Source: Luteibacter sp. dw_328
Lineage (GTDB): Bacteria > Pseudomonadota > Gammaproteobacteria > Xanthomonadales > Rhodanobacteraceae
Assembly: GCF_018449605.1 (NCBI RefSeq)
Contig: NZ_JAAVUW010000007.1
Coordinates: forward strand, 1-64,000
Direction: 5' to 3'
DNA: 64,000 bases
In this document: positions 53,936 to 63,901 of the stretch, in pieces
Layout: each line of letters opens with the position of its first letter
How positions within the stretch are numbered: position 1 is the first letter of the stretch
Made by a program: the position numbers and the translations under genes
Notes under the pieces: model-generated
What the model was told of the DNA's origin: nothing
What the model saw: only the letters and a program-made list of their open reading frames with translations
Databases searched by the model: none

Positions 53936-54251
53936 GCAAGAACTCCTTTTTGGTGAATTTCAAACCCTGAGACAACGATCACCGACACTTTACTTCGACC
54001 CCTTCCGGGTTTAAGGTTCACTCCGGTCGTAACCACAACATCTTGTGTTCCCAGGCTGACTTGTTACCTAGCACTGGTGCTGCGGTTACTCAGGTTCAGG
54101 CTTCAAACCATCGTCGGCAAAGGCTTTTCGGGGGTCGACGAGGGAGCAAGGATGGTCGGCAGAGGCTCCGGGGGGAGAGCTGTCGAGGTGGTTGCGTTAC
54201 CGCATACCAATAAAAGGCCTACAAAGGCCGAGACTCGAGGACGACACATAC
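53936..54251. other. Divergent promoter region degQ / nrdJa
   Basis: These 316 bases separate degQ and nrdJa. They contain an NrdR-box-like sequence at 54033-54048. I found no cobalamin riboswitch-like B12 box, which some class II reductase genes carry. The rest shows nothing I can name. Confidence 0.5.
54033..54048 (+). promoter_or_regulatory. NrdR-box-like operator
   Basis: CCACAACATCTTGTGT fits the 16-base NrdR consensus (acaCwAtATaTwGtgt) at 13 positions, including all the strongly conserved ones. A second box at the usual 31-base spacing was not found. Confidence 0.5.
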
Positions 54252-56399
54252 ATGAGCACTGCACGTGCGCAAGCCATGGGGCTTGAGACCGCGGCCATTC
54301 CGCTTCAGCCCGCCTCGTACGACATCTGGGACAAGAAGTACCGTCTGAAGGCGAAGTCGGGTAACCCCGTCGACGAGTCGGTGGACGGCACCTACCAGCG
54401 CGTCGCCCGCGCACTGTCCGATGTCGAAGGCACCGACGAGCTGCGCGCACACTGGTTCGAGCGTTTCCTCTGGGCCCTGCGCCGCGGTGCCATTCCCGCT
54501 GGCCGCATCACGTCCAATGCTGGCGCGCTCGAGCACAAGCCGGCCACCTCCACGATCAACTGCACGGTCTCGGGCACCATCCACGACTCGATGGACGACA
54601 TCCTCGAGAAGGTGCACGAAGCCGGTCTGACGCTGAAGGCCGGTTGCGGCATCGGCTACGAGTTCTCGACGCTGCGCCCGCGCGGCGCCTACGTCTCCGG
54701 CGCCGGCGCCCACACGTCGGGCCCGCTGTCGTTCATGGATATCTACGACAAGATGTGTTTCACCGTCTCCTCCGCCGGCGGTCGCCGCGGTGCGCAGATG
54801 GGTACCTTCGACATCGCGCATCCGGACGCCAAGGAATTCATCCGCGCCAAGCGCGAAGACGGTCGCCTGCGCCAGTTCAACCTGTCGCTGCTGATCACCG
54901 ACGGCTTCATGGAAGCAGTCGAGAACGACCAGGACTGGCCGACGGTCTTCCCGGTGCACGTCAAAGAGCAGCACGAGATCGACCTCAACGACGCCGCCAA
55001 GGTCCTCTGGCGCGAGTGGCCGACCAAGCAGAATTACGTCACGCGCGAAGACGGCCTGGTCGCCTGCAAGATCTACGGCCACATCCGTGCGCGGCACCTG
55101 TGGGACATGATCATGGTCTCGACGTATGACTACGCCGAGCCGGGTTTCATCCTCATCGACCGCGTCAACGAGATGAACAACAACTGGTGGTGCGAGCACA
55201 TCCGCGCGACCAACCCCTGCGGCGAGCAGCCGCTGCCGCCGTACGGCTCGTGCCTGCTGGGCTCGATCAACCTCACCGTGTTCGTCCGCGATCCGTTCGG
55301 CCCCAAGGCCCGGTTCGACTGGGAGGAATACCGCGAGGTGGTCCGCGTGTTCACCCGCATGCTCGACAACGTGGTCGAGATCAACGGCCTGCCGCTCGCC
55401 CAGCAGCGCGAAGAGATCATCTCCAAGCGTCGCCACGGCATGGGTTTCCTGGGCCTCGGCTCCACGGTCACCATGTTGAAGATGCGCTACGGCAACGCCG
55501 ATGCGGTCGCCTTCACCGAGGAAGTCTCGCGTGAGATGGCGGTCGCCGGCTGGGAAGTGGCCCTGGAGCTCGCCAAGGAAAAGGGCCCGGCGCCGGTCCT
55601 CAGCCGCGAGTACGACGTCACCGCCGAGATGCTGCGCAAGCGCCCGGAGATGGTCACCGACGGCTGGAAGGTCGGCCAGGCTATCCGTGGCAGCGTGCTG
55701 CACGCGAAGTATTCTCGCTACATGCAGCGCGTGGCCGACGTGGCCCCGGAGCTGATCGAAGCCCTGGCCGAGACCGGCGCGCGCTTCACCCACCACTCGT
55801 CCATCGCGCCCACCGGCACGATTTCGCTCAGCCTGGCCAACAATGCCTCCAACGGCATCGAGCCCAGCTTTGCGCACCACTATTCCCGCAATGTGATCCG
55901 CGAAGGGAAGAAGTCGAAAGAGAAGGTCGAGGTCTTCAGCTACGAGCTGCTGGCCTACCGCGCCCTCATCAATTCCGAGGCGCTGCCGTTCTCCGACGAC
56001 CCGAAGACCCGCCTGCCGGATTACTTCGTCTCCGCCGACGACATCAGCCCGAAAGAACACGTAGACATCCAGGCGGCCTCGCAGAAGTGGATCGATTCTT
56101 CCATTTCCAAGACCGCGAACGTCCCGACGGATTATCCGTATGAGGACTTCAAGGACATCTATATGTACGCCCATAAGCAGGGTCTGAAGGGCTGCACAAC
56201 CTTCCGTTTTAACCCCGCCGCGTTCCAGGGCGTGCTCGTAAAAGAAACCGACCTGGAGAACACCCTCTATCGCTTCGAATTGGAAGACGGTAGCGTTGTC
56301 GAACTGAAGGGTAATGAAGAGGTCGAATACGACGGTGAAATGCACACCGCCGCGAACCTCTTTGATGCTTTGAAGGAAGGCTATTACGGTAAGTTCTGA
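54252..56399 (+). CDS. nrdJa: Class II (B12-dependent) ribonucleotide reductase, catalytic part
   Basis: This is the large part of an adenosylcobalamin-dependent ribonucleotide reductase, which makes deoxyribonucleotides with or without oxygen. The 715-residue protein has the class II landmarks STINCTVSGTIHDSMDDI (one redox Cys), NPCGEQPLPPYGSCLLGSINL (the NPCGE motif with the thiyl Cys), the IAPTGTISL loop and GLKGCTTFRFNPAAFQG near the end. It lacks the C-terminal cysteine pair and the TSCPD domain, which are encoded separately by nrdJb two genes on. The ATG at 54252 gives MSTARAQAMG; upstream in-frame codons lack homology. Confidence 0.94.
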   Translation: MSTARAQAMGLETAAIPLQPASYDIWDKKYRLKAKSGNPVDESVDGTYQRVARALSDVEGTDELRAHWFERFLWALRRGAIPAGRITSNAGALEHKPATSTINCTVSGTIHDSMDDILEKVHEAGLTLKAGCGIGYEFSTLRPRGAYVSGAGAHTSGPLSFMDIYDKMCFTVSSAGGRRGAQMGTFDIAHPDAKEFIRAKREDGRLRQFNLSLLITDGFMEAVENDQDWPTVFPVHVKEQHEIDLNDAAKVLWREWPTKQNYVTREDGLVACKIYGHIRARHLWDMIMVSTYDYAEPGFILIDRVNEMNNNWWCEHIRATNPCGEQPLPPYGSCLLGSINLTVFVRDPFGPKARFDWEEYREVVRVFTRMLDNVVEINGLPLAQQREEIISKRRHGMGFLGLGSTVTMLKMRYGNADAVAFTEEVSREMAVAGWEVALELAKEKGPAPVLSREYDVTAEMLRKRPEMVTDGWKVGQAIRGSVLHAKYSRYMQRVADVAPELIEALAETGARFTHHSSIAPTGTISLSLANNASNGIEPSFAHHYSRNVIREGKKSKEKVEVFSYELLAYRALINSEALPFSDDPKTRLPDYFVSADDISPKEHVDIQAASQKWIDSSISKTANVPTDYPYEDFKDIYMYAHKQGLKGCTTFRFNPAAFQGVLVKETDLENTLYRFELEDGSVVELKGNEEVEYDGEMHTAANLFDALKEGYYGKF

Positions 56400-56419
56400 C
56401 CCCGCGGAGAGGGAAAAAC

Positions 56420-57607
56420 ATGTCCAACGAAAACCAGGTTGTCGAGGGTGAGCTGCCCGATATCGACACCAATGACACCGTCGAGACGCCCGAAGCGGAG
56501 ACGAATGTCGCCGCTGAAGTGACGCCGTCGCCGGTGGTTGCGAAGAAAGTCGTCAAGAAGAAGCCGGTCGCGATCAAGACGATCGACCCGACGCCCGAGC
56601 CGGCTGCTGCCGCTTCGAGCGACCACGATCTTGGCGAACCCGACTTCGTGTCGGAGCCGGCTTCCGAGTCGGTTGTGTCGGAGCCGTACTCGGCCCCGGT
56701 CGTCAAGAAGGCTCGCAAGGCGCCGGTGAAGAAGGCTGCCGTTGTCGAGGTTGCCCCGGTGGAGACGCCGGCTCCGGCCAAGAAGGCTGCGAAGAAGGCA
56801 ACTCGCAAGGCGGCTCCGAAGGCGGCTCCGAAGGCGGCACCTGCTGAAGCTGCGCCGAAGAAGGCTGCCGCTAAGAAGGCTGCGCCGAAGAAGGCTGCTG
56901 CTGCCAAGAAGGCTCCGGCCAAGAAGGCGGCGGCAAAGGCTGCTCCGAAGAAGGCGGCTGGTAAGAAGGCTGCTGCCAAGAAGGCTGCGCCGACCAAGGT
57001 TGCTGCCAAGAAGGCTACGGCTAAGAAGGCCGTCAAGAAGGCTGCGGTGAAGAAGGTGGCTGCGAAGAAGGCAGTCGCCAAGAAGGCACCGGCCAAGAAG
57101 ACTGCCGTGAAGAAGGCTGCGGTCAAGAAGGTTGTTGCTAAGAAGGTTGCCGCCAAGAAGGCCACGAAGAAAGTCGCGGTCAAGAAGGCAGCTTCCAAGA
57201 AGGTCGCTTCCAGGAAGGCTGTGACTAAGGCCGTCAAGAAGGCGCCGGCTCGTAAGGTTGCCTCGAAGAAGGTCGCCAAGAAGGGTTCGACCCGTAAGGC
57301 AGCAGCAGTCAAGAAGGTTGTCCGCAAGGCAGCCGGTCGCGTCGTGAAGAAGGCAGCCGCCGTCCGCAAGACGGTCAAGAAGGCTGCCGGTCGCGTTGCG
57401 AAGAAGGTCTCGACGGCTCGCAAGGCCGTCAAGAAGGGCGTAGCCAAGGTAGCTCGCAAGAGCGCCGGCCGCGTCGCAGCTGTAAAGAAGACGGTCCGCA
57501 AGGCCGCCAGCAAGAAGATCGCCCCCAAGGCGGTCAAGAGGTCCACTGCCAGCAAGACCGGTCGTACGGCGGCACGCAAGAGCGCCGTTCGTGGCCGTCG
57601 TAAGTAA
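56420..57607 (+). CDS. Lys/Ala-rich histone H1-like protein (AlgP-like)
   Basis: A 395-residue low-complexity basic protein. An acidic N-terminal part (residues 1-95, ending EPYSAPVVKK) precedes about 290 residues of KKAAAKKA/KKVAAKK-type repeats, with Arg increasing toward the C-terminus (KTGRTAARKSAVRGRRK). This resembles eukaryotic H1 tails and AlgP/Hp-like bacterial nucleoid proteins, so it probably binds DNA nonspecifically. Such repeats are prone to length change. It lies 20 bases after nrdJa and is followed by a long hairpin and nrdJb. Confidence 0.85.
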   Translation: MSNENQVVEGELPDIDTNDTVETPEAETNVAAEVTPSPVVAKKVVKKKPVAIKTIDPTPEPAAAASSDHDLGEPDFVSEPASESVVSEPYSAPVVKKARKAPVKKAAVVEVAPVETPAPAKKAAKKATRKAAPKAAPKAAPAEAAPKKAAAKKAAPKKAAAAKKAPAKKAAAKAAPKKAAGKKAAAKKAAPTKVAAKKATAKKAVKKAAVKKVAAKKAVAKKAPAKKTAVKKAAVKKVVAKKVAAKKATKKVAVKKAASKKVASRKAVTKAVKKAPARKVASKKVAKKGSTRKAAAVKKVVRKAAGRVVKKAAAVRKTVKKAAGRVAKKVSTARKAVKKGVAKVARKSAGRVAAVKKTVRKAASKKIAPKAVKRSTASKTGRTAARKSAVRGRRK

Positions 57608-57615
57608 GTAGCACC

Positions 57616-57648
57616 TATTCCGCCCGGCGCCAGGCGCCGGGCGGAATA
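57616..57648 (+). other. Long perfect hairpin between histone-like gene and nrdJb
   Basis: The 16-base arm TATTCCGCCCGGCGCC pairs perfectly with GGCGCCGGGCGGAATA around one base. There is no T-run, so it is more likely an mRNA-stability or processing element than a terminator; it lies 18 bases before the nrdJb ATG. Confidence 0.7.
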
Positions 57649-57665
57649 CCTATAAGAGAAGAGTC

Positions 57666-58445
57666 ATGGCGATCAAGATCGAAAAGAAGATCAAGGGCTA
57701 TAACGTCGTTAAGCCCGAAGACAAGGCCGCTCCGGCCCCCGCGCCCGTGCCGGTGAAAGAAGCCGCGCCCGTGGCTGAAGTCATCCAGATGCACGAAAGC
57801 CTGGAACGACCGGAGACCCTCGTCGGCAGCACGTACAAGATCAAGTCGCCGCTCTTCGAGCACGCGCTGTACGTGACGGTCAACGATATCGTCCTGAACG
57901 CCGGCACCAAACACGAAATGCGCCGCCCCTTCGAGCTGTTCATCAACTCGAAGAACATGGACCACTTCCAGTGGATCGTGGCGCTCACCCGAATTTTGTC
58001 CGCCGTCTTCCGCAAGGGTGGCGACGTGACGTTTATTGTTGAAGAACTCAAGGCGGTCTTCGACCCGCGCGGCGGCTACTTCAAGGCTGGCGGCGTTTAT
58101 ATGCCGAGCATCGTTGCCGAGATCGGCGCGGTGGTTGAGCAGCATATGAAGTCGATCGGCCTGATTCACGACCCGGAAATGAGCGACGCGACTCGCGCGC
58201 TGATTGCCGAGAAGCGTGCTGCTTACGAAAAGGCCGCCAAGCCTGCCGTTCCCGCAGCTGTTCCTGTAGGAGCCGGCTCCGCCGGCGATGCTCCTGCTTC
58301 CCAGGCCGCCGCAGAAGCCGCCCACATGAACGCCTCAGGCTTCCCCGCTGGCGCCACGCTCTGCGCTAAGTGCAATACCCAGGCGTTGGTGCTGATGGAT
58401 GGGTGCCAGACTTGTTTGAATTGTGGGTATTCGAAGTGCGGGTAA
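57666..58445 (+). CDS. nrdJb: Class II ribonucleotide reductase, TSCPD subunit NrdJb
   Basis: NrdJb supplies the C-terminal part missing from NrdJa. The 259-residue protein has the TSCPD domain (EMRRPFELFINSKNMDHFQW ... GGDVTFIVEELKAVFDPRGGYF, about residues 75-150) and a C-terminal cysteine-rich tail, CAKCNTQALVLMDGCQTCLNCGYSKCG. The tail carries the cysteines that re-reduce the active site and may bind zinc. The linker between them includes VGAGSAGDAPAS, which is the translation of a REP element inserted in frame. The split NrdJa/NrdJb form is known from Pseudomonas and Xanthomonadales. Confidence 0.9.
   Translation: MAIKIEKKIKGYNVVKPEDKAAPAPAPVPVKEAAPVAEVIQMHESLERPETLVGSTYKIKSPLFEHALYVTVNDIVLNAGTKHEMRRPFELFINSKNMDHFQWIVALTRILSAVFRKGGDVTFIVEELKAVFDPRGGYFKAGGVYMPSIVAEIGAVVEQHMKSIGLIHDPEMSDATRALIAEKRAAYEKAAKPAVPAAVPVGAGSAGDAPASQAAAEAAHMNASGFPAGATLCAKCNTQALVLMDGCQTCLNCGYSKCG
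58266..58289 (+). repeat. REP inside the nrdJb coding region
   Basis: GTAGGAGCCGGCTCCGCCGG followed by CGAT is a complete forward REP of the GGCTCCGCC subtype. It is read in frame as Val-Gly-Ala-Gly-Ser-Ala-Gly-Asp in the linker before the Cys-rich tail. Confidence 0.88.
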
Positions 58446-58521
58446 AGCCTCGTCGTTGCCAGGTGACCGCTGATCGTTGATAAATTGCCCTGAATCTTGG
58501 TCTTTAGGCCTCGCCCCCAGT

Positions 58522-58545
58522 AGCCCTGTTTTTTCAGGGCTTTTT
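58522..58545 (+). terminator. Rho-independent terminator after nrdJb
   Basis: AGCCCTG (58522-58528) pairs with CAGGGCT (58535-58541), loop TTTTTT, followed by a T-run. Confidence 0.9.
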
Positions 58546-58786
58546 CGTTCTCAGGATTTTTGTTGTGGTGCAAGTCTCTCGCTCAACACGCCATACGCCT
58601 TAAGCATCAATTGGTTTACCGTTCCAGTGTCCTGCTTTGTCATAGCGCTGAGCCTTCTCGCTCAGGCCGGTTGGGCTGTCGTCGAGCGGCCGTTAAGCGC
58701 GAGCTATCAAGCTGCAGCTAAGCCCGCGCTTACGCCCCTGACTCCAAGTATGCTGCGGCTTCGCAGTACCTCGGGGGCCGGTTCAA

Positions 58787-58900
58787 ACCTAACTGACAGC
58801 AAGGCGGTGTTTCGACAGCGGGCCTGCGCCCCGGAGAACGCTGAGTGGCTGGCGCGCTTCCACAAAGGCGGCGCCCGCCGGTAGTGCCGCCGAGTTAGGC
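58787..58900. other. attC-like site (possible integron recombination site)
   Basis: ACCTAAC (58787-58793) fits the attC R-box form RYYYAAC, and GTTAGGC (58894-58900) fits its partner GTTRRRY; the two pair at six of seven bases. Between them, GGCGG/CCGCC and GCGGGC/GCCCGC make further imperfect stems, total 114 bases. The next ORF begins 15 bases after, as in gene cassettes. No integrase gene and no second clear site are visible, and such boxes can arise by chance. Confidence 0.3.
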
Positions 58901-58914
58901 GGTAGTACTTTCTT

Positions 58915-60618
58915 ATGGAGAAGGGGGGCGAAGTGCCAAACATCAAAGTGAAGAGTATCGAATTCGGTGATATTGGATTCCGTAAGCTGAAGGACTTCAG
59001 TGTCGACATCGCGAGCAGGATTACTTTGGTGTCTGGGCATAACGGCATCGGTAAATCCACCATCTTGGGGCTTCTGGCAAATAGCTCAGGACTGACACAG
59101 CTCACTAAGGCCCCGAAATCGTATTTCGGCAAGACCTTCCAAGCGAATCTGTCTGAAATCATCTTCATCGACTACGAAGGCGAATTCCTGAGCGCGCAGG
59201 AAGCAGACGCCCTACCGCGGCCCATCATCACCTACGAAATTAACGGACAGGAAAGTTTCCAAAAGCGATGCGCGCTGACCGACCGCAGCACAGAAGGACG
59301 TGCCCGCATCGTGCCCCGTAATTTCTATCCGTCCAGTAAGAAGTTTGTGTCAGCTGACGACACCATCACTATTGGTGATGCTTCCAAAGTACCGCTTCCT
59401 ACGCTTTACCTGGGCATGACCCGAGTGTTTCCCTTGGGCGAAGCAGAAGAAGGGTCAGGTTACAGTGAGGTGTTGAAGACGATGCCCGACGCGGATAGGC
59501 AGCTCATTGCTGACTTCATGAACGCAGTCATCGTTGGCACGGACGCGAAGCAGGCGTCGGTCACCTCGAATCGCATCAAAGGGACAAGTAAGTTCTCTAG
59601 CCATCCCCAATACGGCTACGACGCTAGGTGCGTCTCGCTCGGGCAGGACAGCCTAGGTAGCATCGCAGCGGCTATCGCATCCTTTCAAATGCTGAAAAGG
59701 GACTGGGTGGACTACCCTGGTGGCCTCTTGGTCATCGACGAACTGGATTCAGGATTTCATCCCCATGCGATTAAGCGGCTCGTTGAGCAGCTGGCGAAAG
59801 CGGCCGAAGATCTCAATTTGCAGATTGTGGCCACCACACACTCCACCAAGCTCATCGAAGCCATTTACCCTCGGGCTAACAGTCGGTCCGCGAAGAATGT
59901 TGTCGCGTATCTTATGGATACCCGTGCGCCTCGTTTGATGAGCTCCGGAACGCTCCAAAGCATCCTAGATGACATGGATCTGATTCCGCCAGGTCTTGAG
60001 ACAGTATCAAAGCGACCGGTGCTCAGGACCTATCTGGAAGACAAAGAAGCGGAAACCATCTTCAATTTGCTCATTCCGGCGGCGCGCAAGCGCGCGCTAG
60101 GCGCAGCGTACGATGTGGCCATCAAGCCCATCGCTATGGGCGTGGGATGCGATAGCTTGGCAAACCTGACCTCGATTGACTCGCACTTTAAGCTCGCTTT
60201 GTTCGCACTAGATGCTGATGCCAATATCCGGGCAAAGCACCTTAAATACCAAAACATCGTGAAGCTGCCGGGCGCTGCGAAAGCCTCCCCGGAGCGTACT
60301 CTTTTTGCGTTCATTCAAGACTTGATCAGCAACCGAGACGCGCATCCCGAAACGTGGCGCATCTTGACCGAGAAGAACATAACGACCGACCAGATCAATG
60401 CCCACCTTTTAGACTGGAAGGACGATCTGTCGAAGAGATCCCATGCAAAGAAGTGGTGGAAAGATCGGGCTAACGTCATTAAGTCTTGGAAGCTGTTCGA
60501 GGCTTGGATGGCTGAAAACCAAGCAATGGTCGAGCAGTTCCATAAGGATTTCGAGGCCGCGGTGAAAGTGGTCGCCAAGCGGTTGCGGACGCTCGCCAAA
60601 ATGCCTGTTAACCCCTAG
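58915..60618 (+). CDS. ABC-type AAA ATPase with probable C-terminal TOPRIM domain (OLD-like)
   Basis: A 567-residue ATPase resembling OLD/AAA_15 defence proteins. Walker A is GHNGIGKST (residues 41-49), the signature-like segment is VSLGQDSLGS, Walker B is LLVIDELD (Asp275, Glu276), and ATTHS is the switch. The C-terminal third has a TOPRIM-like pattern: Glu375 in TYLEDKEAETIF and DAD (433, 435) in LFALDADAN, the acidic residues expected to hold metal for DNA or RNA cleavage. The gene ends 10 bases before a D12 adenine methyltransferase, so the pair may act as nuclease and protective methylase. I do not recognise it as a named system. Composition looks less GC-rich than the core. Confidence 0.72.
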   Translation: MEKGGEVPNIKVKSIEFGDIGFRKLKDFSVDIASRITLVSGHNGIGKSTILGLLANSSGLTQLTKAPKSYFGKTFQANLSEIIFIDYEGEFLSAQEADALPRPIITYEINGQESFQKRCALTDRSTEGRARIVPRNFYPSSKKFVSADDTITIGDASKVPLPTLYLGMTRVFPLGEAEEGSGYSEVLKTMPDADRQLIADFMNAVIVGTDAKQASVTSNRIKGTSKFSSHPQYGYDARCVSLGQDSLGSIAAAIASFQMLKRDWVDYPGGLLVIDELDSGFHPHAIKRLVEQLAKAAEDLNLQIVATTHSTKLIEAIYPRANSRSAKNVVAYLMDTRAPRLMSSGTLQSILDDMDLIPPGLETVSKRPVLRTYLEDKEAETIFNLLIPAARKRALGAAYDVAIKPIAMGVGCDSLANLTSIDSHFKLALFALDADANIRAKHLKYQNIVKLPGAAKASPERTLFAFIQDLISNRDAHPETWRILTEKNITTDQINAHLLDWKDDLSKRSHAKKWWKDRANVIKSWKLFEAWMAENQAMVEQFHKDFEAAVKVVAKRLRTLAKMPVNP

Positions 60619-60628
60619 AGTCGGGTCC

Positions 60629-61495
60629 ATGTATTCGAACAAACTCTTTACTCCGCTGCGATACCCCGGTGGTAAGGGCCGCTTTGCACCCTACATCGCC
60701 GACATCATGCGAGCCAACGGGTTGGAAGGCGGTCACTACTTTGAGCCCTACGCGGGAGGTGCCGGCGTAGCGCTTGAACTGCTGTACGACGGCGTGGTGA
60801 CCGACATCCATATCAACGATGCTGACCCAGCTCTACACGATTTCTGGATGGTTGCGACGCGCCAGACCGATGCCCTGATTCGTCTCGTGCAGGACGAGCC
60901 GGTCACGATGGACGCGTGGCACCATTGGCGCTCGGTTCTCTTCGGGGAGACCAAAGCGAGCCTTCTCCACCGTGGCTTCGCCACCTTGTTTATGAATCGC
61001 ACCAACCGGTCTGGAATTCTTAAAGCCGGGGTGATTGGGGGGAAGGCGCAGTCCGGAATCTACCGATTGGACGCGCGATACAAGCGCGATGTTCTGGTCG
61101 GTCGCCTAGAACTCCTGAAGCAGCATTCGACGGCAATCAACGTCTACGGCGAGGACGCGCTCGCACTGCTGGCGCGGTGCAAGGACTTTCTTCCATCGCG
61201 CTCGCTCATCTATTTAGACCCTCCGTACTACCTCAAGGGGCAGGGGCTCTACCGTAATTTCTACGAGCACGATGATCATTTGGCCATTTCTCGCTTGCTG
61301 CAACGCTCGAAGTTTCCGAGGCGCTGGGTGGTTTCCTATGACGACGCGCCAGAGATTCGAGCAATGTATTCAGGGGTCCAGGGAATGGGGTACGGCCTTA
61401 GATATACGGCCCGTCGTCGATACATCGGGTCTGAGGTGATGTTCTTCAGCCCCAAGCTGACAGATATTCCTGACGAGCTGCCCGTGGCGGCTTAG
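60629..61495 (+). CDS. D12-class N6-adenine DNA methyltransferase (Dam-like)
   Basis: A 288-residue D12-class adenine methyltransferase. The S-adenosylmethionine-binding region is FTPLRYPGGKGRFAPYI and FEPYAGGAGVALEL. The catalytic motif is DPPYY (Asp197-Tyr200). MNRTNRSGILKAGVIGG is the family central segment. The target site cannot be read from sequence; GATC is common in this class. It is 10 bases after the OLD-like ATPase and probably co-translated. No classic restriction enzyme adjoins it. Confidence 0.88.
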   Translation: MYSNKLFTPLRYPGGKGRFAPYIADIMRANGLEGGHYFEPYAGGAGVALELLYDGVVTDIHINDADPALHDFWMVATRQTDALIRLVQDEPVTMDAWHHWRSVLFGETKASLLHRGFATLFMNRTNRSGILKAGVIGGKAQSGIYRLDARYKRDVLVGRLELLKQHSTAINVYGEDALALLARCKDFLPSRSLIYLDPPYYLKGQGLYRNFYEHDDHLAISRLLQRSKFPRRWVVSYDDAPEIRAMYSGVQGMGYGLRYTARRRYIGSEVMFFSPKLTDIPDELPVAA

Positions 61496-61760
61496 GCGGC
61501 GCCATCGATAGAGGGTTCGCTTGCTTCGAGGTCGTGCGGCCTCCTTGGTCATCTGACCCCGAGCGTCTACGCACAACAAGGACGGGAAGCAACGTGAGAA
61601 GCGGCTCGACTCTAGTTTTAAAGTGTCTGAAAGAAGGTCCGACGTCACTTCCGACTAACGCATCGAGGGGCGACGCGGCACTTCTCGCGTAGCTCGAAGG
61701 TGCCGAACAGGCTTCAGCGAAGGACTCTGCTCTCGGAGCCGGCTAACTCGCTAACTGCCG
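61496..61760. other. Gap between adenine methyltransferase and vsr
   Basis: These 265 bases separate the convergent adenine-methyltransferase and vsr genes. I see no gene, REP or clear terminator. The composition is mixed, consistent with an acquired region. Confidence 0.4.
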
Positions 61761-62255
61761 CTACGGCGAGCTCACAAGCGTTGGGGCAGCTTGCCTCGAT
61801 CCTATCGAGAATATATCCGCATGTCGGCTCGATCCATCTAGCCATTCTACAATTCCATTACGAAGCGCTTCCGAATCGCTTTTAAAGGGGCTGGCTTTGA
61901 GTGCGCATTCCCAGATGACGAGCGTCCGCCAGCCACCTTCATGCAGCGCATTGAGCGCGGCAAGGTCTCTCTGTCGGTTCCTGATCAGTTTCTCCCGCCA
62001 GAATTCAGGTCGCGAACTTGGCCACTTGAACAGGTAACAATCGTGGTTGTGCCAGAAACATCCATGAACGAACACCGCGGTGCGATAGCGTGGAAGGACT
62101 AGGTCGGGGTGTCCCGGCAGATCCTTTCGATGGAGTCGAAACCGTAAGCCAGCGGCATGAAGGAGACGGCGAACGGTCAGCTCCGGCTTGGTGTCCTTAC
62201 CGCGAATTCCGGCCATCATCCGTGAGCGCCTAGCTGAGTCTACAATGTCTGTCAC
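61761..62255 (-). CDS. vsr: Very short patch repair endonuclease (Vsr)
   Basis: Vsr nicks next to T:G mismatches formed by deamination of 5-methylcytosine and so protects sites methylated by a partner cytosine methyltransferase. The 164-residue protein has the family opening DIVDSARRSRMMAGIRGKDTKPEL, then HPDLVLPRYRTAVFVHGCFWHNHDCY with the catalytic Asp and zinc-binding His/Cys, and the later GWRTLVIWECAL. The GTG at 62255 is chosen because CCAGGAG lies 7 bases upstream and family members begin there. It diverges from the cytosine methyltransferase with 65 bases between. Confidence 0.92.
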   Translation of the reverse strand: MTDIVDSARRSRMMAGIRGKDTKPELTVRRLLHAAGLRFRLHRKDLPGHPDLVLPRYRTAVFVHGCFWHNHDCYLFKWPSSRPEFWREKLIRNRQRDLAALNALHEGGWRTLVIWECALKASPFKSDSEALRNGIVEWLDGSSRHADIFSIGSRQAAPTLVSSP

Positions 62256-62320
62256 GCGACAACTCCTGGCGAAAGTCCCTCGACTTGATATCCTATGCGT
62301 CTCTAGGGGCGCGTACATCT

Positions 62321-63901
62321 ATGTCGAGTAAAATCAGCGTCATTGACCTTTTCGCTGGGCCAGGGGGGTTGAACGAGGGATTCTCTTCGTTTGTCAATGG
62401 AAAAGGCCAATCGCCTTTCCAGACAGCCATTTCGATCGAGAAGGAAAGCAGCGCTCATTCGACGCTGCTCCTCCGTGCGTTCTATCGCCAGTTCCCTCAT
62501 GGCGAGGCCCCCTCTGAATACTACGATTTTATCTCCGGCAGGCTCGGGCCGCGTCCGGAGTCTTCGTTGTACTCACTCGCAAAATTCCGGAAACAAATTG
62601 CCCGTGCTCGCGAAGAGGCTCGCTGTCTTACCTTAGGCGAGCACGACGACGAGATCGATGCCGCTCTCCATACTTCAATGGGCTCGAATCGTGAATGTGT
62701 CGTCATCGGCGGTCCACCCTGCCAAGCCTATTCGCTTGTCGGCCGATCGAGAAGAATGAGCGACGCCTCATACGTGGCGGAAAACGACGGCAGAAACTTC
62801 TTGTACCAACAGTACTTGCGTATTATCACCAAGTGTCGTCCTGTCGCGTTCGTTATGGAGAACGTAAAGGGGATGCTATCTGCGGAGGTCGGGGGGGAGC
62901 GCGTCTTTCATCGCATTCTGGAGGACCTGCAGCGCCCTTGGGGGCGCTCTAAGAAGGGCGGACTGGGCTATCGCATTTACTCGCTCGCGGTTCCTTCGGG
63001 CGTCGATGCTGGGGTTCTGGACGACCCCGCGGATTACGTGGTTAAGATGGAGCGATTCGGGATTCCCCAAGCGAGACACCGCGTTCTTCTGTTCGGCATC
63101 CGCGAGGACGTTGCGCCGCGATGGCGGCCGAACCTGCTGTTGGAGCAAGCCGCTGAGTTAACGGTAAGAGATGTCATTGGCGGCTTGCCGAAATTGCGCA
63201 GCGGCGTCTCGCGGACCGATGACAATCGCGATACTTGGCGCGCCGCTATGTCGGGCCTGAAGGCCAACTTGGCTGAGGTGCGAGCTCATGCAGGGGCACG
63301 TGTCGTCGAGCAAATTCGAGCAGCGATCGACGAATCGCTTACCGTTCCCGATTCTCGTGGGCAGAATTTTTCGCCGGACTCTGTTCCGGCGCGGATTTTC
63401 GGGAGCATGCCTCGATCGCTGCGCCGTTGGTACGCGGACCCATCGGGTAGGGGGTTGCTATGCAATCACGAGTCGCGAAGTCATATGCCCGGTGACTTGC
63501 AGAGGTATCTATATTGCTCCGCCTGGGCAAAGGTGGCACAGGGCAATCCTTCATTGCACCCTTTTCCCAAGCCATCTGACTATCCTGAGTCGCTAATCCC
63601 AGCCCATAGTAATTTCGCTTCGGGTCACTTTGCGGACAGGTTTCGAGTGCAGGTTGAGAATAGATTCGCGACGACCGTAACGAGTCATATTGCGAAAGAC
63701 GGCCACTACTTCATTCACTACGACCCGGCACAATGCCGCAGCCTCACCGTGCGCGAGGCTGCTCGCATCCAGACGTTCCCAGATAACTATTTTTTTGTAG
63801 GCAATCGAACACAGCAATATGTACAAGTCGGCAACGCTGTGCCACCGCTTCTTGCCGCAAAAGTTGCACAAATAGTGGCTACTCTTCTAAACGTGCATTG
63901 A
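62321..63901 (+). CDS. dcm: C5-cytosine DNA methyltransferase
   Basis: A 526-residue cytosine-5 methyltransferase of a restriction-modification type. Motif I is VIDLFAGPGGLNEGF, motif IV with the catalytic Cys134 is GGPPCQAYS, motif VI is MENVKG, motif VIII is QARHRVLLFG and motif X is QVGNAVPPLLA. A long variable region (about residues 320-420) contains the target-recognition part. The sequence specificity is unknown. It diverges from vsr. Downstream a new gene starts in the same direction, where a restriction component would be expected. Confidence 0.93.
   Translation: MSSKISVIDLFAGPGGLNEGFSSFVNGKGQSPFQTAISIEKESSAHSTLLLRAFYRQFPHGEAPSEYYDFISGRLGPRPESSLYSLAKFRKQIARAREEARCLTLGEHDDEIDAALHTSMGSNRECVVIGGPPCQAYSLVGRSRRMSDASYVAENDGRNFLYQQYLRIITKCRPVAFVMENVKGMLSAEVGGERVFHRILEDLQRPWGRSKKGGLGYRIYSLAVPSGVDAGVLDDPADYVVKMERFGIPQARHRVLLFGIREDVAPRWRPNLLLEQAAELTVRDVIGGLPKLRSGVSRTDDNRDTWRAAMSGLKANLAEVRAHAGARVVEQIRAAIDESLTVPDSRGQNFSPDSVPARIFGSMPRSLRRWYADPSGRGLLCNHESRSHMPGDLQRYLYCSAWAKVAQGNPSLHPFPKPSDYPESLIPAHSNFASGHFADRFRVQVENRFATTVTSHIAKDGHYFIHYDPAQCRSLTVREAARIQTFPDNYFFVGNRTQQYVQVGNAVPPLLAAKVAQIVATLLNVH

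What the first reader, a model, noticed from the sequence alone, without database searches (positions are those of the whole stretch)
58915..61495. Candidate two-gene defence module: OLD-like ATPase/TOPRIM nuclease plus Dam-like methyltransferase
Seen: Walker A/B and switch motifs in the 567-residue protein, acidic pairs typical of TOPRIM (Glu375, Asp433/Asp435), and a D12 adenine methyltransferase 10 bases downstream in the same direction. Known: OLD-family ATPase-nucleases act in phage defence (GajA, retron effectors, PARIS-like proteins) and D12 methylases mark self DNA. Inferred: the ATPase-nuclease may act on unmethylated DNA, with the methylase as antidote, a restriction-like system without a classic endonuclease. 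I do not recognise a named system with this two-gene layout.
Basis: partly seen in the sequence, partly recalled or inferred. Interest (0 to 1): 0.75.

Follow-up and report, generated by a model that had tools for sequence, protein, structure and literature searches.

The report
OLD-like ATPase-nuclease paired with DNA methylase
A bacterial gene pair, one gene for a putative ATP-driven nuclease and the next for an enzyme that marks DNA, turns out to be a widely shared module, often carried by prophages, that probably protects cells by attacking unmarked foreign DNA; it resembles known phage-defence systems but matches none of those checked.

Summary
In detail: an intact OLD-type ABC ATPase (567 aa; real start probably GTG 58933, 561 aa) lies 10 bp upstream of a D12 adenine methyltransferase. 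The pairing is not accidental: of 138 distinct ATPase relatives gathered with ATPase sequence alone, 124 have a relative of this methylase in the locus, 112 within 400 bp; 0 of 28 control loci do. The C-terminal domain models well (pLDDT 95.9) and has E375, D376, D433 and D435, invariant in 111 of 111, placed as in TOPRIM nucleases; no sequence or Foldseek match is significant, so 'TOPRIM' is probable, not shown. The methylase is of the PD-lambda-5_B type (352 bits). In PD-lambda-5, an experimentally proven defence system, its partner is a ParB-like protein; here it is the ATPase. Loci with all three genes exist, and the ATPase also occurs with type I restriction genes, other D12 and C5 methylases. 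Best reading: a restriction-modification-like or RM-guard system in which methylation marks self and the ATPase-nuclease is the effector. Defence, target and trigger are untested. New variant of a known kind.

The parts
58915..60618 (+). OLD-type ABC ATPase with C-terminal TOPRIM-like domain (567 aa; more likely start GTG 58933, 561 aa)
   Evidence: start: and homologue N-termini
59035..59058 (+). Walker A GHNGIGKS (residues 41-48)
   Evidence: translation; G41, N43, K47 invariant in 111 of 111
59635..59649 (+). ABC-signature-like SLGQD (residues 241-245)
   Evidence: S241, G243, D245 invariant
59725..59742 (+). Walker B LLVIDE (residues 271-276)
   Evidence: D275 invariant, E276 at least 90%
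59839..59841 (+). switch histidine H309
   Evidence: invariant
59986..60615 (+). C-terminal TOPRIM-like domain, residues 358-567
   Evidence: AlphaFold2 pLDDT 95.9; VIA-align Z 5.6 to AriB, 5.4 to the Burkholderia OLD TOPRIM, tied with unrelated folds; no significant Foldseek or sequence match
60037..60042 (+). E375-D376, putative metal-binding pair directly after strand 1 of the domain
   Evidence: invariant in 111 of 111; strand 369-374
60211..60219 (+). D433-x-D435, putative TOPRIM DxD directly after strand 3
   Evidence: invariant in 111 of 111; strand 429-432
60629..61495 (+). D12-class N6-adenine DNA methyltransferase of the PD-lambda-5_B type (288 aa)
   Evidence: PDLC04018 5.7e-106; Pfam MethyltransfD12; DPPY invariant
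61217..61228 (+). DPPY catalytic motif of the methyltransferase (residues 197-200)
   Evidence: alignment A4, invariant in 31 of 31

Best explanation
A two-gene, restriction-modification-like defence module. The D12 methyltransferase puts an N6-methyl mark on a short site in resident DNA. The OLD-type ATPase surveys DNA, or the methylation machinery, and when it meets unmodified foreign DNA (or sabotage of modification) its C-terminal TOPRIM-like nuclease cuts nucleic acid and stops the phage, directly or by aborting the infection. Shown: both genes intact, conserved putative catalytic residues, conserved adjacency, recurrent linkage of this ATPase to several unrelated kinds of DNA methylase. 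Inferred: methyl mark as self signal, ATPase as sensor and effector, nuclease activity, defence.
For: Adjacency: a relative of this methylase in 124 of 138 distinct ATPase loci, 112 within 400 bp, against 0 of 28 control loci of other ATPases or canonical OLD proteins, whose flanks are only about 1.5 kb. Of the 9 loci that lack it and are not cut off downstream, 7 carry another methylation system: another D12 methylase (L051, L072), type I restriction genes (L174, L180, L182) or a C5 methylase (L184, L187) (ORF tables; Pfam for one protein each of L072, L174, L180, L184, L187; L051 and L182 read by eye). So DNA methylation is the common factor, not one protein. In the window no classical restriction endonuclease was found among the five proteins scanned around the pair; the next gene, on the other strand, is a Vsr mismatch endonuclease. 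The ATPase is OLD-like (profile-profile 99.2% over residues 240-322; top Foldseek match TsOLD, E 1.4e-10). E375, D433 and D435 are placed as described for the Retron-Eco8 TOPRIM (passages). The methylase family is that of PD-lambda-5, a proven defence system (passages, section 7). Setting: viral contigs, phages, a plasmid and, in the window, a defence-rich island.
Against: No experiment. TOPRIM homology of the C-terminal domain is not significant by sequence or Foldseek; receiver and lumazine-synthase folds score as high or higher (Z up to 6.8). 2 of the 9 loci lacking this methylase show no methylase that I recognised (L104, L185). In the 369-genome class sample the ATPase profile matched 6 genomes at E <= 1e-10, and the 3 weakest (G188, G372, G402; 47-82 bits) have no such methylase in the roughly 1.5 kb flanks. 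Many relatives of the methylase have the ParB-like partner instead: 14 of 22 genomes. The relatives gathered are the best 80 of 154 and best 80 of 250 confirmed, and all five seed sequences came from loci already seen to carry the methylase.
Confidence: 0.55

Rival explanations
1. Guard/abortive-infection module: the ATPase does not restrict unmodified DNA but watches over a DNA-modification system, much as PARIS AriA senses the anti-restriction protein Ocr, and releases a suicidal nuclease (possibly a tRNase, as AriB is) when a phage attacks it. The methylase is the guarded partner or a brake.
For: Same ATPase family among type I restriction genes that include an HsdR-like nuclease (Pfam for L174; L180 and L182 by eye), where a second restriction nuclease is unneeded; loci that combine the ATPase with both PD-lambda-5 genes. 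A 2026 survey describes OLD-ABC modules as backup effectors beside BREX (passages). PD-lambda-5 was described as a compacted RM+Abi system (passage).
Against: In the window no classical restriction endonuclease stands beside the pair, so there is little to guard except the methylase itself; I did not count this across the other loci.
Confidence: 0.3
2. The pair is cargo without shared function: an OLD-like nuclease and an orphan Dam-like methylase that protects the mobile element from host restriction, kept side by side in prophage cargo zones.
For: Many relatives are in viral contigs (79 loci); phages often carry a related methylase without the ATPase (295 phage records match the methylase, while 7 match the ATPase, both at E <= 1e-5).
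Against: Adjacency across phyla at a median gap of 40 bp in one orientation (97 of 138) and also in the reverse order (12 of 138), 0 of 28 in controls, and distance correlation of the two proteins (Mantel r 0.43, maximum of 500 permutations 0.07; only 0.15 among distant pairs).
Confidence: 0.1

Closest known systems
PD-lambda-5 (Vassallo et al. 2022, PMC9519451)
   Same: Same methyltransferase family (PD-Lambda-5_B, 352 bits); mobile-element setting; two-gene layout.
   Different: Its A component is a ParB-like protein (PADLOC PD-Lambda-5_A; examples of 413-514 aa), not seen beside the window pair; here an OLD-type ATPase stands in its place. Some loci have all three.
OLD nucleases, classes 1-3 (TsOLD, GajA, retron-Eco8 effector)
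   Same: N-terminal ABC ATPase followed by a C-terminal domain with E after strand 1 and DxD after strand 3.
   Different: Partner is a DNA methylase, not GajB helicase, reverse transcriptase or nothing; C-terminal domain too divergent for significant TOPRIM matches; E-D-x-E instead of the E-G-x-x-E spacing of the canonical OLD proteins seen.
PARIS (AriA/AriB)
   Same: OLD-like ATPase linked to a TOPRIM-type nuclease; ATPase domain aligns with AriA (Z 16.3), C-terminal domain weakly with AriB (Z 5.6).
   Different: One fused protein here, with a methylase partner.
Type II restriction-modification; type I RM with a linked guard protein (PrrC, RloC: recalled)
   Same: Methylase next to a putative nuclease; relatives of the ATPase sit among type I RM genes.
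   Different: No classical restriction endonuclease found beside the pair; the putative effector is an ATPase.
ABC-ATPase-anchored RM-like conflict systems (Krishnan et al. 2020, NAR; cited in PMC12839542)
   Same: May include this very arrangement; [quoted passage not shown]
   Different: Paper not held, so not compared.

Membership tests
OLD family of ATPase-nucleases | N-terminal OLD-type ABC ATPase | tested here: met
   Pfam AAA_15/AAA_21; hhalign 99.2% to a profile of 10 canonical OLD-type proteins, over residues 240-322 only; Foldseek top hit TsOLD
OLD family of ATPase-nucleases | C-terminal TOPRIM nuclease domain | tested here: inconclusive
   Strand order and E375/DxD placement fit; Z 4.7-5.6 to AriB and OLD TOPRIM, tied with unrelated folds; Pfam OLD-like_TOPRIM_1 in 2 of 111 members, best E 0.0084; hhalign and Foldseek not significant. 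RloB against OLD TOPRIM scored as low in the same set-up, so the hhalign negative carries little weight
OLD class 2 / Gabija | adjacent UvrD-like helicase GajB | tested here: not met
   neighbours are a TSCPD-domain protein and a D12 methylase, then Vsr and a C5 methylase
PARIS (class 4) | ATPase and TOPRIM on separate genes | tested here: not met
   one 567-aa ORF
PD-lambda-5 | PD-Lambda-5_B methyltransferase | tested here: met
   PDLC04018 5.7e-106, 352 bits
PD-lambda-5 | PD-Lambda-5_A ParB-like partner | tested here: not met
   the adjacent gene is the ATPase; no PD-Lambda-5_A among its 25 best PADLOC rows of 100, none for its C-terminal or middle part; scan of the own genome with one of the 25 models (PDLC04017) found none
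Type II restriction-modification | cognate DNA methyltransferase | tested here: met
   D12 class with intact DPPY; activity not tested
Type II restriction-modification | adjacent classical restriction endonuclease | tested here: not met
   none among the five proteins of 57666-63901 that were scanned with Pfam, NCBIfam and PADLOC; Vsr, present at 61761-62318, is a mismatch endonuclease family
Type II restriction-modification | cleavage blocked by the cognate methyl mark | not testable with these tools
   needs biochemistry

The most novel reading that the evidence does not exclude
A widespread, unnamed class of OLD-type ATPase-nucleases whose defining partner is DNA methylation rather than any one protein. 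It plugs into whichever methylase is at hand (PD-lambda-5_B-type D12, other D12, type I HsdMS, C5) and uses ATP-gated TOPRIM-like cleavage to act on unmodified DNA or on modification failure, so that PD-lambda-5 and these pairs are interchangeable versions of one modular 'methylase plus swappable effector' system.
Probability: 0.4. Interest if true: 0.75.

Novelty: new variant of a known kind. Interest (0 to 1): 0.6.

Why it matters
It ties an OLD-family effector to DNA methylation, a link not in the OLD class scheme that I read in passages (classes 1-5), and shows that the methylase of PD-lambda-5 is a shared part with exchangeable partners. If the ATPase discriminates by methylation, it would be a restriction system whose effector is an OLD ATPase-nuclease, and would offer a simple two-gene model for how OLD nucleases are kept silent on self DNA.

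Tried and rejected
TOPRIM by sequence: PDB profile search with the C-terminal alignment gave only chance rows; Pfam on 111 members gave scattered rows, 2 of 111 OLD-like_TOPRIM_1; hhalign to canonical OLD TOPRIM and to RloB not significant; PF24395 found in none of 114 sampled genomes or 14 controls, so no profile could be built from it; DUF4435 (AriB) matched 2 of 114 genomes and was not used. Foldseek with the domain alone: nothing at E <= 0.001 in the PDB or viral library.

PD-lambda-5 membership was the first hypothesis; dropped when PD-Lambda-5_A proved to be a ParB-like protein ('ParB-like' is my reading of the EGNRR-type motif; Pfam gave no ParB match for the five tested).

A single-protein scan of genome contigs with the window ATPase found nothing; the alignment scan did. 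A search of 147 family genomes matched 22, but beyond the window itself only one match (G066) was strong; the other loci of that call served as controls.

Literature: searches listed no paper whose title, abstract start or read passages describe this pair; the library lacks most subscription papers and bioRxiv preprints, and Krishnan et al. 2020 is not held, so priority is not settled.

Full report
OBSERVATION. The two genes are as described: ORF 58915-60618 (567 aa) and ORF 60629-61495 (288 aa), same strand, 10 bp apart. The ATPase start is probably GTG 58933, preceded by AGGGGGG; homologues such as L072, L127 and L128 begin at the equivalent place, giving 561 aa. Pfam sees AAA_15/AAA_21 and MethyltransfD12. 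PHROG 3940 (unknown function, 537 positions) covers the ATPase almost end to end (2e-94), so the family is known to phage genomics but unnamed there.

THE ATPASE. AlphaFold2 with a 111-sequence alignment gives pLDDT 94.1. Foldseek's best PDB match is the Thermus OLD nuclease 6p74 (E 1.4e-10), followed by retron PtuA, SMC heads and GajA; TM-scores on the query are low, 0.26-0.38 in the 50 rows shown. VIA-align places residues 1-358 on PtuA, SMC, Rad50 and AriA with Z 15.7-19. A profile of 10 OLD-type proteins pulled in with PF20469 matches residues 240-322 at 99.2%. The ATPase is therefore OLD-like.

THE C-TERMINAL DOMAIN. Residues 358-567 fold alone with pLDDT 95.9. Order: strand 369-374, E375-D376, helix, helix, strand 402-407, helix, strand 429-432, D433-x-D435, strand 448-450, then helices. 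Passages on retron-Eco8 (PMC12887533) place the canonical TOPRIM glutamate immediately after strand 1, a second glutamate in helix 1, and DxD between strands 3 and 4; E375, E378 and D433/D435 sit likewise. E375, D376, D433 and D435 are invariant in 111 of 111 aligned sequences; E378, K512 and R508 are kept in at least 90%. Against this: no PDB sequence match, 2 of 111 members near OLD-like_TOPRIM_1, no Foldseek match at E <= 0.001, and VIA-align Z of only 5.6 to AriB (153 aligned, 5.5 A) and 5.4 to the Burkholderia OLD domain (160 aligned, 6.9 A), below receiver domains at 6.8 (105-108 aligned). By the aligned ranges, E375 would fall on AriB E26, whose E26A mutant is inactive (passages), if no gap intervenes; I could not superpose coordinates. 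I put divergent TOPRIM at about 0.8.

THE METHYLASE. Its best PADLOC match is PD-Lambda-5_B (5.7e-106); the family profile matches solved structures 7m6b and DpnM 2dpm. DPPY is intact. Target motif unknown.

CONSERVED PAIRING. Loci were gathered with the ATPase alignment alone: best 80 of 154 in viral contigs (79 loci) and best 80 of 250 in genome contigs. After removing near-identical ATPases, 138 remain: methylase downstream same strand within 400 bp in 97 (median gap 40 bp), upstream same strand within 400 bp in 12, downstream opposite strand within 400 bp in 3, further away in 12, absent in 14, of which 5 end at a contig edge. Control: 0 of 28 loci of other ATPases or canonical OLD proteins has such a methylase; their flanks are about 1.5 kb. 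The five seeds of the alignment all came from loci with the methylase, so the sample is of near kin. In an unselected sample of 369 genomes of the class the profile matched 6 at E <= 1e-10: the window, G335 and G420 have the methylase adjacent, while the three weakest (G188, G372, G402; 47-82 bits) have none in the short flanks. Hosts span Pseudomonadota, Bacillota, Bacteroidota, Planctomycetota, Nitrospinota and others (record titles; tree labels). The pair is also in phages phiNP and GBSInt4, in ValB1MD-2 (convergent), and on a Psychrobacter plasmid (ATPase in two pieces).

PARTNER SWAPPING. In PD-lambda-5 the methylase's partner is a ParB-like protein (PD-Lambda-5_A). In the same 369-genome sample 22 carry a PD-Lambda-5_B methylase at E <= 1e-25: 14 with the ParB-like gene nearby, 3 with the ATPase (window, G335, G420), 5 with neither in the short flanks. 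Fourteen ATPase loci (two of them the same locus from two collections) carry all three genes; 10 of 10 ParB-like proteins tested hit PD-Lambda-5_A, two weakly (1.1e-8 and 2.4e-8). On a methylase tree of 82 rows the partner state needs at least 14 changes (shuffled mean 25.2), and the window methylase lies in an all-ATPase group of 20 (support 99; quick method, 25 of 79 inner branches open). ATPases can be close while methylases are far: 101 of 1005 locus pairs with ATPases over 40% identical have methylases under 40%. Nine ATPase loci not cut off downstream lack this methylase: L051 and L072 have another D12 methylase, L174, L180 and L182 sit among type I restriction genes, L184 and L187 have a C5 methylase, L104 and L185 none recognised (Pfam support for L072, L174, L180, L184, L187).

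MECHANISM. The steady factor is a DNA methylase, whatever its kind; in the window no classical restriction endonuclease stands beside the pair (a Vsr mismatch endonuclease follows on the other strand). The simplest account is methylation as self mark and the ATPase-nuclease as conditional effector. Whether it restricts unmodified DNA directly or guards modification and aborts infection cannot be decided here. The loci among type I genes favour guarding; the bare pair favours restriction. [quoted passage not shown]

SETTING. The island begins just after the TSCPD gene (57666-58445). In sister genome G089 the same site holds 11.8 kb of other sequence before homology resumes at contig base 82193; in G518 homology resumes at 95546 after 0.8 kb. 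Beyond the pair lie Vsr, a C5 methylase, SspF/G/H-like genes, a DUF262-type protein (domain name recalled; PADLOC HEC-06 match) and putative dynamin-like genes: a defence-rich hotspot.

LITERATURE. PMC9519451: section 7 and passages read. PMC10568477, PMC12839542, PMC10853773, PMC12707154, PMC12796447, PMC12629846, PMC12824646, PMC10952713, PMC12409363, PMC8136825, PMC12887533: passages only. The OLD class scheme (classes 1-5) has no methylase-linked class in what I read. Krishnan et al. 2020 could not be read and may hold prior description.

VERDICT. Real, conserved, not a member of the named systems tested; a new variant of RM-like/OLD/PD-lambda-5 defence. Function inferred, not shown.

Noticed in passing
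61761-63901 and contig C19 63945-72189 (L228): Vsr endonuclease, C5 methylase, then proteins with PADLOC matches to SspF, SspG and SspH: SspFGH-like restriction genes beside a C5 methylase.
   Followed up: partly
contig C19 72473-80988 (L228, L229): DUF262/GmrSD-type protein (HEC-06 match; domain name recalled), two putative dynamin-like GTPases (weak LeoA/LeoBC matches) and a WYL regulator.
   Followed up: no
57666-58445 and onward; L253, L254: The site after the TSCPD gene is a variable hotspot: G089 has 11.8 kb of other genes, G518 an element matching C19 95546-125291.
   Followed up: partly
54192-58445: A 735-aa ORF that reads as the ribonucleotide reductase (by eye) and a separate TSCPD-domain protein matching the end of the B12-dependent enzyme, with a lysine/alanine-rich histone-H1-like ORF (56420-57607) between them.
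   Followed up: no
L174, L180, L182: Relatives of the ATPase sit among type I restriction genes, next to specificity or modification genes and HsdR-like genes.
   Followed up: partly
L149, L152, L194, L204 and others: Three-gene loci combining the ATPase, the ParB-like PD-Lambda-5_A protein and the methylase in varying order.
   Followed up: partly
L259 (own genome, contig C1 131046-131246): The same genome also has a protein with a canonical OLD TOPRIM domain, PF20469.
   Followed up: no
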